A program made the translations under genes and the position numbers. Of a stretch of 64,000 bases of DNA, positions 53,887 through 59,131 are shown piece by piece (the stretch's first letter is position 1; every line of letters begins with the position of its first letter). The stretch is from contig NZ_QPJK01000002.1 of NCBI RefSeq assembly GCF_003337555.1, positions 868,001 to 932,000 on the forward strand, read 5' to 3'. The notes under the pieces are model-generated. The model made no database searches, was not told the origin of the DNA, and saw only the letters and a program-made list of their open reading frames with translations. The stretch is from Pseudorhodoferax soli. Its GTDB lineage: Bacteria > Pseudomonadota > Gammaproteobacteria > Burkholderiales > Burkholderiaceae_C.

Positions 53887-54784
53887 GTTGCACTCCTCCG
53901 CCATCCCAGCTCTGCAGCGGATGGCTCTGCACGTCGATGCCATGGCGCTGCAACGCCTCGCGCACGCCGCGCAAACGGCGCACGGCGGGCTCGCCCACGC
54001 GCTGGGCCACCAGCACGGTCAGGATCTCGATCAGGGTCAGGTGCACCAGGTAGGCATCGATGCCCACGTGCATCACCGCGTCGTCCGGCACGGTCAGGCC
54101 CAGCAGCCAGTCGGCCCGCGCGGCCAGCGGCGTGCCGGGCCGCGTGATGGCCACCACCTTGGCACCCTGCGCGCGCGCGATGTCCACCGCGTCGAGCAGG
54201 CTGGGCATGCCGCCCACGTGCGTGAAGGCGATGACCACGCCGCCGGCCTTCTGCGCGCCGGCCGCCACCTGTTGCAGGTGGTAGTCGGCCCAGGCCGTGG
54301 CCGACAGGCCCAGGCGGAACAGCCGCGCCTGCAAGTCCATGGCCATGAACCAGGAGGTGTTGCCGGCGCCGACGATGTCGATGTGTGTCGCCGTGGCGAT
54401 GGCGTCCACCGCGGCCTGCAGCACGTCCATGTCGAGCTGGTTGCGCACGCCGGCCACCGAGGCCGCGGCGCTGCGCGCGATCTTGCCGACCACCTCGTCG
54501 GCGGCATCGGCGATGTTCACGCGGCGGTGCAGCGGCGAGCCGCCCAGCGCCAACTCTTGCGCCAAGGCAAGCTTGAACTCGCGCAGGCCGGCGAAACCCA
54601 GGTCGCGGCAGGTGCGCATGATGGTGGGCACCGAACTGCCGCTGCGCTCGGCCAGCTGCTCGAAGCTTTCCTCGAGCGTGCGGTCGGGGTCCTCCAGCAT
54701 GGCTTGCAGGATGGCGCGGCGCGTGGCCGGCGCCGCCTCGCGCGCCAGCGCGATGCGTTCGAGCAGGGAGGGCGAGTTGTTCAT
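53879..54784 (-). CDS. RpiR family transcriptional regulator (HTH + SIS domain)
   Basis: 301 residues. The N-terminal HTH_6 domain (FEQLAERSGSSVPTIMRTCR) is followed by a SIS sugar-isomerase-type ligand domain (IDIVGAGNTSWFMAMDLQAR, VVIAFTHVGGMPSLLDAV). Embedded between the deaminase and deacylase genes, it is the likely regulator of the whole D-amino-acid locus. RpiR-like dyads (TGAAA-N5-TTTCA) occur in the divergent promoter at 61.7-61.8 kb. Its ATG overlaps the upstream stop by one base. Confidence 0.88.
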   Translation of the reverse strand: MNNSPSLLERIALAREAAPATRRAILQAMLEDPDRTLEESFEQLAERSGSSVPTIMRTCRDLGFAGLREFKLALAQELALGGSPLHRRVNIADAADEVVGKIARSAAASVAGVRNQLDMDVLQAAVDAIATATHIDIVGAGNTSWFMAMDLQARLFRLGLSATAWADYHLQQVAAGAQKAGGVVIAFTHVGGMPSLLDAVDIARAQGAKVVAITRPGTPLAARADWLLGLTVPDDAVMHVGIDAYLVHLTLIEILTVLVAQRVGEPAVRRLRGVREALQRHGIDVQSHPLQSWDGGGVQRG

Positions 54785-56058
54785 CAGAAGTGCAGCGTGA
54801 CGGCATCCGTCACGCGGTAGTCGTCCTCGACGATGGGCATCCAGTGCCATTTGTCGAAGGTGGTGCAGGGATGCGAGATGCCGAGGCCGACGCGCTCGCC
54901 GACCACCGGGGCCGTGGCCTCGTCGGCGGCGTCCCAACGCAGGAAGGCGTGCTGGTCGTTGAGCGCCGTGACCGTCCAGCTCGCGGGGATCGCCTGCGGC
55001 GCCGGCATGCCGCGCGGTGCGCGCGCAAACGGGATCGGCATCTCCTGGTCGTAGGAGATGTCGCGCCGCCCGCAGGTCAGGATCGCCAGGCCCGGCTCGG
55101 GCCGCGACTGCACGGCGGCCCAGACTTCGAGCGCAGGCTGCAGCGTTTCGGTGAAGCCGCAGCGCTCGGCCACCGAGGCCAGCAGGCGCTTGTAGTTGCC
55201 ATGGTCGTGCGTGATGTAGCAGCCCGAGCGCAGCAACCCGCGCACGGGCCGGCCCAGCAGCGGCGTGAGGCGCCCGGCCACCAGGTCGAAGATGGCCGAG
55301 CCGCCGGCCGAGAGCAACACCTCGTCGTGCGCGAACAGGCTGTCCTCTGCGCACAGCTTGGCGATGGCCTCGACGCGGGTCATCAGCGCGTCGGCGTAGG
55401 CCGCGTCGTGCTCGGTGCGACCGGTGGCGCCCATGCCCTCGTAGCACTCGATGCCGGCCAGCCGCGTGGCCGGGCTGGCGTGCAGCGCGCGGGCCAGTGC
55501 GGTGGCCTCCTCGTGCGTGCGGCAGCCGGTGCGGGCGCCGGGCACGCCGATCTCCAGCATCACCTCGAACGGCTGGCTGCCGGGGTGCGCGGCGAACCAT
55601 TGTTCGATCAGCGCAAGCTGGGCGGTCGAATCGACGAGGAACACCACGCGCAGACTGGCATGTGCGGCCAACAGCGCCTGGATGCCGGCCAGGTCGTCGT
55701 CGGTCACGACCTGGTTGGCGATCAGCGTGCGGCGCGCGCCGGCCTGCACGCCGACGGCGAGCTGCGTGACGGTGGCGAAGCTCAGGCCCCAGGCGCCGGT
55801 GTCGAGCTGGCGCGTGAACAACTGGGGCGACATGGTGGTCTTGCCATGCGGCGCGAGGTCGATGCCGCGCTCGCGCACGAAGGCCTGCATCCAGGCCAGG
55901 TTGTGGCTCAGCGCGCTGCGTTTGAGGACGGCCAGGGGGAGAGGCAAGCGGCCATCGAGCACGTGCCAGCCGGCGCTGCCGATGGTGCTGAGCGCACGGG
56001 GTGCTTCGGTGCGTGGGTAGCCCTTGTAGCCGGGGTCGAGGATGGGGTCAGTGGTCAT
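54784..56058 (-). CDS. D-serine/D-threonine deaminase-like PLP enzyme (DSD1/alanine-racemase fold)
   Basis: 424 residues. The alanine-racemase-type N-terminal barrel has the PLP lysine K73 in APHGKTTMSPQ. The C-terminal domain has the metal-binding pair H396/C398 in GISHPCTTFDKW, characteristic of zinc-dependent D-serine dehydratase/D-threonine aldolase-type enzymes. It would convert D-amino acids to keto acids via enamine/imine intermediates, consistent with a RidA gene in the same locus. Exact substrate preference is not decided by sequence. Confidence 0.87.
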   Translation of the reverse strand: MTTDPILDPGYKGYPRTEAPRALSTIGSAGWHVLDGRLPLPLAVLKRSALSHNLAWMQAFVRERGIDLAPHGKTTMSPQLFTRQLDTGAWGLSFATVTQLAVGVQAGARRTLIANQVVTDDDLAGIQALLAAHASLRVVFLVDSTAQLALIEQWFAAHPGSQPFEVMLEIGVPGARTGCRTHEEATALARALHASPATRLAGIECYEGMGATGRTEHDAAYADALMTRVEAIAKLCAEDSLFAHDEVLLSAGGSAIFDLVAGRLTPLLGRPVRGLLRSGCYITHDHGNYKRLLASVAERCGFTETLQPALEVWAAVQSRPEPGLAILTCGRRDISYDQEMPIPFARAPRGMPAPQAIPASWTVTALNDQHAFLRWDAADEATAPVVGERVGLGISHPCTTFDKWHWMPIVEDDYRVTDAVTLHF

Positions 56059-56091: not shown

Positions 56092-56198
56092 GGTCGCGGC
56101 CACCGGGTGGCCCCTTCCGCGAATGTCCCCCGCCAGGGCCGCAGGCGGCCCTGGCTCCTCCTTTATTTCGCTGCAGGGGCCACCCGATACCCTCGACC
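56092..56198 (-). repeat. Structured repeat element, copy A
   Basis: Outer stem 56092-56114 / 56176-56198 (19 of 23 Watson-Crick, with a perfect 10-bp GGGTGGCCCC/GGGGCCACCC core). Inner stem GCCAGGGCCG/CGGCCCTGGC (56132-56155) with a 4-base loop. Between the stems lie two segments identical to copy B: on the minus strand GCAGCGAAATAAAGGAGGA and GGGGGACATTCGCGGA. The minus strand is given as sense because two of the four non-pairs become G-U there. Confidence 0.7.
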
Positions 56199-56205
56199 TT
56201 GGACA

Positions 56206-56237
56206 CGTCGCGTCGTGCGGGGGCGTGCGACGCGACG
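56206..56237. repeat. Hairpin between structured repeats A and B
   Basis: CGTCGCGTCG (56206-56215) and CGACGCGACG (56228-56237) form a perfect 10-bp stem with a 12-base G-rich loop. It separates the two head-to-head structured repeats. Confidence 0.6.
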
Positions 56238-56243
56238 TTGATG

Positions 56244-56374
56244 GACCGCGTCGATGGTGTGCTCCACGCAGCGAAATAAAGGAGGAGGCCTTGCCCGCCT
56301 TGCCGGCCCCAAGGCCGGCAAGGCGGGCAAGGCCGGGGGACATTCGCGGAGTGGAGTACACCGTCGGCGCGGTC
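56244..56374 (+). repeat. Structured repeat element, copy B
   Basis: Outer stem 56244-56267 / 56351-56374: 21 of 24 Watson-Crick pairs, and the other three are G-U pairs on the plus strand. Inner stem 56288-56308 / 56313-56333 is a perfect 21-bp GC-rich helix with loop CCAA. Internal-loop strands GCAGCGAAATAAAGGAGGA and GGGGGACATTCGCGGA are identical to copy A although both stems differ in sequence. The rest of 56059-56402 holds no gene. Confidence 0.7.
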
Positions 56375-56402: not shown

Positions 56403-58295
<1,893 letters not shown>

Positions 58296-58297
58296 GG

Positions 58298-59131
58298 TCA
58301 AGCCGCCTTCTTGAGTTTGGGATCGAGCATGTCGCGCACACCGTCGCCCAGCAGTTGCAGCGACAGCGCGGTCAGGATGATGGCCAGGCCCGGGAACAGC
58401 ACGACCCAGAACGCGCGCTCGGCGTACTGCTGGCTGCCCGCGACCATGGTGCCCCAGGTCGGGATCTCCGGCGGCACGCCCACGCCCAGGAACGACAAGC
58501 CAGCCTCGGCCAGGATCGCGTAGGCGAAGATGAACGAGCCCTGCACCAGGATGGGCGACAGCAAATTGGGCAACACGTGGTGCCACAGGATGTGGGGCGT
58601 GCGCGCGCCGATGGCGCGGGCCGCCTCCACGAACAGCAGCTCGCGCACCACCAGCGTGGAGGCCCGCACCACGCGCGCCACGCGCGGTGTGTAGACCAGC
58701 ACCAGGGCCAGCACCACGTTGGTCAGCGAGGCGCCGAGGATGGCCACCAGCGCGATGGCCAAGAGGATGTCGGGGAAGGACATCATGGCGTCGACCACGC
58801 GCATCAGCGGCGCGTCGAGCCGGCGGAAGAAGCCGGCGACCAGGCCGACAAAGGTGCCGAACACGATGGAGCCCACGGCCGTCATCGCGGCGATGGACAG
58901 CGAGTAGCGCGCGCCATGCACCACGCGGGCATACAGGTCGCGGCCGAGTTCGTCGGTGCCGAGCAGGTGCTCGGCGCTGGGTGCCTTGAGGCGGTCGAGC
59001 ACGGCCGTGTCGTTGGGGTCGGCGCTGGCGAACACCGAGGCGCCCAGCGCCAACACGGTGATCAGCACCAGCACGATGGCCGACAGCAGCACGATGCGGC
59101 GGCGGAACAAGCGGGTCAGAACGGCTTTCAT
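58298..59131 (-). CDS. Oligopeptide-type ABC transporter permease (DppC/GsiD-like)
   Basis: 277-residue inner-membrane permease. The N-terminal helix ([19 protein letters not shown]), then [21 protein letters not shown] and the EAA loop [21 protein letters not shown], are typical of DppC. It is 4 bases from its partner permease and 2 from the ATPase, forming a tight operon. Confidence 0.92.

What the first reader, a model, noticed from the sequence alone, without database searches (positions are those of the whole stretch)
56092..56374. Two head-to-head copies of a covarying structured element with conserved internal loops
Seen directly: copy A (56092-56198) and copy B (56244-56374), inverted relative to each other, share two identical segments (GCAGCGAAATAAAGGAGGA and GGGGGACATTCGCGGA). 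The sequences around them differ yet still pair. The inner stem is 10 bp in A and a perfect 21 bp in B, with unrelated sequence. The outer stem is 23 positions in A and 24 in B. When each copy is read with GCAGCGAAA first, the non-Watson-Crick positions favour G-U: all three in B and two of four in A. Strand-consistent wobbles plus changed but paired stems are signs of selection on RNA structure. The first loop holds AAAGGAGG, complementary to the 16S rRNA 3' end. Inference: an unclassified structured RNA, or a palindromic (REP/BIME-like) mobile repeat acting between the ABC and deaminase operons.
Basis: partly seen in the sequence, partly recalled or inferred. Interest (0 to 1): 0.8.

Follow-up and report, generated by a model that had tools for sequence, protein, structure and literature searches.

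The report
Orientation-locked folded-DNA repeat between operon genes
A dispersed bacterial DNA repeat, made of two back-to-back hairpin arms whose stems change while staying paired, sits just after genes in a nearly fixed direction and looks built to fold as single-stranded DNA rather than to work as one RNA.

Summary
The window element (56092-56374) is one of 16 two-arm copies in this genome, probably a Pseudorhodoferax. The arm model finds 93 of 200 family genomes and 3 of 274 in a class sample, own genome included in both. Covariation is very strong: all 24 outer-stem pairs change on both sides, score 0.740 against 0.202 shuffled. The arms fold on opposite strands, each reading outward. In both, G-T far exceeds A-C (340 to 23); in tandem gene pairs this holds for sense arms (87 to 2) and antisense arms (108 to 11) without any stem filter, so one sense RNA cannot explain it. 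Inner loops are mostly C(GNA)G triloops (172 of 295 arms), a known ultra-stable DNA mini-hairpin. Elements follow stop codons; 69 of 72 mixed-type tandem pairs have one orientation. Empty sites exist at two loci. Best reading: a non-autonomous, REPIN-like repeat whose arms act as folded single-stranded DNA for an unidentified protein. It fails REP and attC membership tests. Function is inferred; no enzyme or expression evidence was found.

The parts
56092..56198 (-). Arm A, the downstream (type 0) arm; on the - strand it is sense for the flanking genes and reads motif 1 - inner hairpin - motif 2
   Evidence: CM R1 87.5 bits; DNA fold z -8.3
56156..56174 (-). Conserved motif 1 of arm A, GCAGCGAAATAAAGGAGGA
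56132..56155 (-). Inner hairpin of arm A, 10-bp stem with CCTG loop
56116..56131 (-). Conserved motif 2 of arm A, GGGGGACATTCGCGGA
56199..56243 (.). 45-bp centre; hairpin at about 56205-56238 (CGTCGCGTCG ... CGACGCGACG), seen by eye in this genus only
   Evidence: sequence
56244..56374 (+). Arm B, the upstream (type 1) arm; antisense to the flanking genes
   Evidence: CM R1 93.1 bits; DNA fold z -14.8
56268..56286 (+). Conserved motif 1 of arm B
56287..56334 (+). Inner hairpin of arm B, 22-bp perfect stem
56335..56350 (+). Conserved motif 2 of arm B
56403..58586 (-). Upstream gene: ABC transporter ATPase; its stop lies 28 bp from the element
   Evidence: longest ORF given, the script's start is 58211
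54784..56058 (-). Downstream gene: D-serine-dehydratase-domain protein (PF14031); its start lies 33 bp from the element

Best explanation
A family of non-autonomous, REPIN/MITE-like dispersed repeats whose two inverted arms work as folded single-stranded DNA. Shown: each arm is a long covarying stem, a short conserved middle stem, a nearly invariant purine-rich internal loop (AAGGAGGA / GGGGGACA) and a variable inner hairpin; the arms are of two distinct types and carry the wobble bias on opposite strands; elements lie just after stop codons in a nearly fixed orientation; most copies looked at in the genus are stable at their sites, but empty sites exist. Inferred: a protein acting in trans recognises the purine loop when each arm is extruded as a hairpin (replication, transcription-driven supercoiling or repair) and has spread copies at low rate into gene junctions, where they do least harm; copies then persist vertically and may exchange hairpins by gene conversion. 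The protein is not identified.
For: Covariation: 29 of 33 pairs changed on both sides, 96.5% of 1510 cells paired, score 0.740 against 0.202 shuffled and at most 0.139 when slid. At orthologous sites inside the genus, 27 two-sided paired-to-paired changes against 8 single and 3 double paired-to-unpaired (24 arm comparisons, several sharing one reference arm). Strand: G-T 340, A-C 23 over 145 arms found by the two motifs only; 702 to 60 over 308 arms without a stem filter; tandem sense arms 87:2 and antisense arms 108:11, 39 each, unfiltered, 181:9 and 210:12, 80 each, in the larger filtered set. 295 of 295 arms fold better on the motif-first strand with DNA parameters, 294 of 295 for the outer stem alone. 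DNA-type loops: 172 of 295 arms C(GNA)G; GNRA or UNCG tetraloops in 5 of 295; GCGAAGC is the inner hairpin of 24 of 295. Location and orientation: 69 of 72 mixed-type tandem pairs; of 77 independent loci, 41 purely consistent, 4 consistent plus another label, 3 against, the rest without a test. Empty sites at glpR-glpK in 5 of 5 congeners, and at the acyl-CoA dehydrogenase-carboxylase junction in 3 of 5, one being filled and one undetermined. Inner hairpins differ as whole units between orthologous sites.
Against: No transposase or recombinase was recognised inside or beside the elements looked at. Y1_Tnp (RAYT) presence is independent of the arms (72 of 93 against 75 of 107, p 0.26). No general target-site duplication (longest shared flank word 5.94 against 5.62 shuffled, 99 elements). 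No phylogeny shows that insertion, not loss, is the direction of change. G-U also fits RNA, so DNA rests on strand symmetry and loop type, both indirect. 12 of 108 pairs have two arms of one type. Most genus copies looked at are old and at conserved sites, which also fits a host function.
Confidence: 0.5

Rival explanations
1. Two divergent structured RNAs. A bidirectional start in the centre makes one RNA per arm, each reading outward; the sense one becomes a 5' leader of the downstream gene, the other is antisense to the upstream gene's 3' end.
For: Both arms carry the wobble bias in the outward reading, and G-U tolerance is classic for RNA. In 69 of 72 mixed-type tandem pairs the same arm type lies near the downstream start.
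Against: The centre is only 40-54 bp in 51 of 52 pairs (30 in one) and differs between genera by eye; no Rfam family reaches gathering; GNA triloops dominate while RNA-type GNRA/UNCG tetraloops are rare, 5 of 295; convergent sites lack a downstream gene to lead into, yet carry whole elements (19 pairs).
Confidence: 0.18
2. A host-useful intercistronic element (ERIC-like or malE-malF REP-like): the arms tune the relative stability or expression of the operon genes on either side, and orientation is kept by selection.
For: 15 of 15 intact own-genome copies lie between co-directional genes in one orientation, at junctions such as ABC permease/ATPase or amidase/AtzH-like; 16 of 18 congener loci fetched are at the site of an own copy, and some sites are shared with more distant family members (for example G233 and Variovorax locus L079, flanks 82-83% identical; whether these are different genera was not determined). 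The ERIC effect on mRNA depends on orientation (PMC2229807, passages).
Against: As sense RNA the upstream arm would carry its wobbles as A-C mismatches (108 against 11 in tandem pairs), so its selected form is not the mRNA. Mixed-type convergent pairs (10 against 7) show no orientation rule.
Confidence: 0.2
3. An integron-like (attC-like) folded recombination site placed after each gene.
For: Folded single strand, low sequence conservation of stems, fixed position after a stop codon; integron integrase family found in the own genome and in 101 of 200 family genomes at E 1e-30.
Against: attC R-box pair present in 2 of 295 arms; arms are paired head-to-head; the own-genome neighbours are metabolic and transport genes; integrase and arms co-occur weakly (53 of 93 against 48 of 107, p 0.09).
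Confidence: 0.04

Closest known systems
REP doublets / REPINs with RAYT transposases
   Same: Two inverted hairpin units with a spacer, extragenic, non-autonomous, predicted to fold in ssDNA or mRNA; compensatory changes are reported in the REPIN hairpin (PMC3116915, passages)
   Different: Arms of 90-131 nt, not about 20-60; no GTAG/CGTC foot tag; two distinct arm types in a fixed order; conserved internal loops with variable stems, where REP sequences themselves are conserved; no Y1/RAYT association
YPAL/RU-2 and ERIC/RU-1 (Yersinia and enterobacterial MITE-like repeats)
   Same: Small palindromic elements with filled and empty sites (YPAL); orientation matters for ERIC (PMC2229807, passages)
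   Different: No clear target-site duplication here; covarying stems around fixed loops and wobble bias on opposite strands. No sequence comparison with them was made
Integron attC sites
   Same: Structure rather than sequence is kept and the site works as a folded single strand (PMC2727003, start of abstract in the listing); placed after a stop codon (recalled)
   Different: No R boxes, paired head-to-head, not in cassette arrays in the own genome
d(GCGAAGC)-type GNA mini-hairpin DNA
   Same: The inner hairpin of 24 of 295 arms is exactly GCGAAGC; 172 of 295 have a C(GNA)G loop
   Different: In print as a stabilising motif for DNA aptamers (PMC4686876, passages); here it caps a natural repeat

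Membership tests
REP / REPIN | GTAG (or GGAG) or CGTC tag at the hairpin foot | tested here: not met
   GTAG or GGAG at the outer foot in 1 of 295 arms, CGTC in 0; GTAG at the start of motif 1 in 8, GCAG in 269
REP / REPIN | Unit of about 20-60 bp | tested here: not met
   Arms 90-131 nt
REP / REPIN | Two units in inverted order | tested here: met
   52 of 55 neighbouring arm pairs head-to-head within 130 bp
REP / REPIN | Associated RAYT transposase | tested here: not met
   72 of 93 arm genomes and 75 of 107 others carry Y1_Tnp, p 0.26; 21 arm genomes have no Y1 match; own Y1 locus L163 has no motif 1 within 5 substitutions
REP / REPIN | Hundreds of copies | tested here: not met
   32 arms in the own genome
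MITE (ERIC/YPAL type) | Presence/absence polymorphism at one site | tested here: met
   L022 and L018 sites
MITE (ERIC/YPAL type) | Target-site duplication | tested here: inconclusive
   Suggestive 9 bp at L019 and a partial one at L018; no clear excess over 99 elements
Integron attC | RYYYAAC / GTTRRRY boxes (recalled consensus) | tested here: not met
   2 of 295 arms
Integron attC | Integron integrase in the genome | tested here: inconclusive
   53 of 93 against 48 of 107, p 0.09
Known structured RNA (Rfam 15) | Match at gathering score | tested here: not met
   0 in the window; the best of 16 sub-threshold matches, mir-5681, scores 37.7 against a cut-off of 88
Burkholderiales-1 motif (Weinberg 2010) | Its alignment | not testable with these tools
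   Listed without an Rfam number in the table passage of PMC2864571; supplements not readable here
Folded-ssDNA element | Protein or enzyme acting on the folded strand | not testable with these tools
   needs bench work

The most novel reading that the evidence does not exclude
A previously undescribed class of genomic element that carries its information as folded single-stranded DNA: a natural DNA-aptamer-like module, its G-rich internal loop (GG-R-GG ... GG-R-GG, with A/G swaps between the two strands of the loop) possibly a two-layer quadruplex or purine clamp, present as two divergent, orientation-locked arms and read by an unknown recombinase or nucleoid protein.
Probability: 0.3. Interest if true: 0.85.

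Novelty: new variant of a known kind. Interest (0 to 1): 0.62.

Why it matters
Clear covariation is normally read as RNA. Here the selected strand switches between the two arms of one element, which points to DNA that is selected for its own fold. With nearly 300 distinct natural arms at hand, the rules for folded-DNA recognition can be tested directly. The near-fixed orientation next to stop codons in metabolic operons also makes a testable case of how small repeats live with, or serve, operon expression in a large environmental family (Variovorax, Hydrogenophaga, Rhodoferax and relatives).

Tried and rejected
One sense RNA: rejected by the wobble bias in the antisense arm. Target-site duplication: suggestive at single loci, not supported over 99 elements. 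RAYT as the mobilising enzyme: the flank of the own Y1 gene in L163 has a GGGGTCAG ... GGGGACAT stretch that looked like the arm loops; in the 17 of 21 Y1 loci whose flanks I printed, its layout did not match the arms by eye, so the likeness was dropped as weak; no co-occurrence. Integron attC: no R boxes. Autonomous copy: the two widely spaced arm pairs inspected (L075, L179) hold no ORF that I recognised as a recombinase by eye; these ORFs were not searched against a family library. G-quadruplex: ViennaRNA placed one in the best structure of 24 of 295 arms with either parameter set, so it stays a speculation. Phages: one query, no match. Viral contigs: exact motif 1 gave 0; looser patterns gave 7 stretches, of which 2 held an arm by CM. 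Plasmids: only Variovorax records matched three queries; the three regions opened carry no gene annotation here.

Limits. One search used stricter filters and scored 19 candidates per genome, so its copy counts are lower bounds. (42 of 199, own genome included) holds many weak matches near the cut-off. The 295-arm set required 16 of 24 outer positions paired with G-T counted as paired, which favours G-T; 13 of 308 arms were dropped by this, and without it G-T to A-C is 702 to 60. Genes were called by my own codon-usage script. Several arms are orthologous (108 pairs, 77 independent loci). The genome lists for the co-occurrence tests were copied.

Literature: the motif sequences gave two chance hits on one 13-mer, in papers on other subjects by their listings, and I saw nothing on such a repeat in these genera in the listings; papers under other licences were not searched.

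Full report
What is there. Read motif-first, each copy ("arm") is: a 24-position outer stem; GCA/GGA; a middle stem GCGAA/TTCGC; an asymmetric purine loop (A[A/C]AAGGAGGA opposite GGGGGACA); and an inner hairpin of variable sequence. The arms are head-to-head, each reading outward, around a 45-bp centre. Single-strand DNA folding gives z -8.3 for A and -14.8 for B on the motif-first strands, against -5.7 and -11.8 for their complements.

How many and where. The own genome (G000; genus Pseudorhodoferax, inferred because contig lengths of its congeners G002 and G003 equal those of Pseudorhodoferax sp. Leaf265 and P. aquiterrae) has 32 arms in 16 elements plus one reverse-strand echo of an arm. 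A covariance model from 46 diverse arms finds 93 of 200 family genomes. In a class sample it finds 3 of 274: the own genome, one more of the family (G118) and one of another family, G293, with 13 arms. A plain DNA query finds 42 of 199 relatives, own genome included, many weakly.

Structure is under selection. On the 46-arm alignment, 96.5% of 1510 cells pair, all 24 outer-stem pairs have two-sided changes, and the covariation score is 0.740 against 0.202 in shuffles and at most 0.139 in slid controls. The middle stem also covaries (GCGGC/GCCGC, GCGAC/GTCGC), and a frequent variant replaces two of its pairs by G-A/A-G together with A-to-G in the next loop base (24 of 295 arms). In the purine loop, A45/G78 swaps to G/A in 17 of 295 arms, A/A being seen in 5, and the Gs around them are nearly invariant. 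In G293 the GCA/GGA triplets are replaced in several arms by Watson-Crick triplets. At orthologous sites within the genus, 27 two-sided changes keep pairing, while 8 single and 3 double changes break it (24 comparisons), and inner hairpins differ as whole units. Eleven of 134 inner hairpin sequences occur in both arm types.

Which strand. In 145 arms collected by the two motifs alone, outer-stem non-Watson-Crick cells are G-T 340, A-C 23, other 140 of 3480, with the same bias for arms on either strand of the loci (165:11 and 175:12). A wider collection of 308 arms gives 702 to 60. K-means on outer stems splits the 295 arms that pass a pairing filter into two types, 148 and 147, and 96 of 108 pairs hold one of each. 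In tandem gene pairs of the unfiltered set, the arm on the sense strand has 87 G-T to 2 A-C and the arm on the antisense strand 108 to 11 (39 arms each); in the larger filtered set 181:9 and 210:12 (80 each). A single sense transcript would turn the antisense arm's wobbles into A-C mismatches, so the element is not selected as one mRNA segment. All 295 arms are more stable on the motif-first strand under DNA parameters.

DNA or RNA. The inner loops are triloops in 212 of 295 arms and C(GNA)G in 172; GNRA or UNCG tetraloops number 5. GNA and GNNA loops closed by G-C pairs make the extraordinarily stable mini-hairpin DNAs, with a Tm as high as 78 C for GCGAAGC (PMC4686876, passages seen), and GCGAAGC itself is the inner hairpin of 24 arms. 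Loop type has been used before to choose between DNA and RNA for a structured motif, there in favour of RNA (STAXI; PMC2864571, passage). This argument is indirect.

Location and orientation. In the first set of 52 paired elements, 39 lie between tandem genes, 10 between convergent genes, 1 between divergent genes with a gap of 842 bp, and 2 at an edge; no row lay inside a called gene. In the larger set, 69 of 72 mixed-type tandem pairs have the type-0 arm next to the downstream gene, 8 further tandem pairs had two arms of one type, mixed-type convergent pairs split 10 to 7, divergent sites number 2, and 7 were at an edge or far from a gene. Of 77 independent loci, 41 are purely consistent, 4 are consistent plus another label, 3 are against, and the others are convergent, same-type, divergent, far or edge. 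The element begins a median of 37 nt after a stop codon and ends a median of 49 nt before a start. Neighbours of the 15 own copies are mostly metabolic and transport genes.

Mobility. 16 of the 18 congener loci fetched align over their length with an own locus, at 8 own loci in all, so these copies are old residents. Two sites show gain or loss: glpR-glpK, filled in the own genome and without the element in five congeners (one of which, G002, has another 92-bp insert), and acyl-CoA dehydrogenase-carboxylase, filled in G000 and G005, empty in G002, G003 and G004, and undetermined in G001, with the compact junction CACTGACATGACC in G003. The differences of about 340 bp include 33-40 bp on the stop side and 47-48 bp on the start side beyond the stems. 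A general target duplication is not supported. A short tail like GCCCYGAA, up to one mismatch, follows 97 of 295 arms within 45 nt.

Verdict. The best reading is a REPIN/MITE-like, non-autonomous repeat whose arms are recognised as folded single-stranded DNA. Nothing here identifies the recognising protein: Y1 transposase presence is independent of the arms and integron integrase presence only weakly related. A host role at operon junctions and a pair of divergent RNAs remain open.

Noticed in passing
L250:2114-2816 and L251 (G003 and G002, ortholog of the L019 site): Where the own genome has the element, two congeners carry a different repeat-like insert of about 700 bp with large palindromes (CTTACTTTCTCTTGCTTCGCCAAGAGAAAGTAAG), so this junction may attract unrelated repeats.
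   Followed up: no
L234 (G002, glpR-glpK junction): A 92-bp insert of another kind at the site where the own genome has the element.
   Followed up: no
3' flanks of Variovorax arms, e.g. L101, L102, L082, L138: A tail like GCGCCCYGAACAACA appears repeated imperfectly about every 15 nt beyond some arms, by eye.
   Followed up: partly
L163 and most of L268-L287: Y1/RAYT genes of this family carry similar flanks (AATAATTGGGGTCAGATTCCAATT ... GGGGACATATCA) at the 3' side and in some cases the 5' side, a REP-like signature of their own.
   Followed up: partly
L066:1220-1308, L114:2316-2404: Hybrid arms with the 5' half of one type and the 3' half of the other, both in one MAG; recombination or an assembly artefact.
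   Followed up: no
many Variovorax loci, e.g. L057, L068, L091, L096: Single arms without a detected partner, often between convergent genes.
   Followed up: partly
G020: One family genome has 20 Y1_Tnp matches, several with identical scores, an apparent IS200-like burst, and is not among the arm-positive genomes.
   Followed up: no
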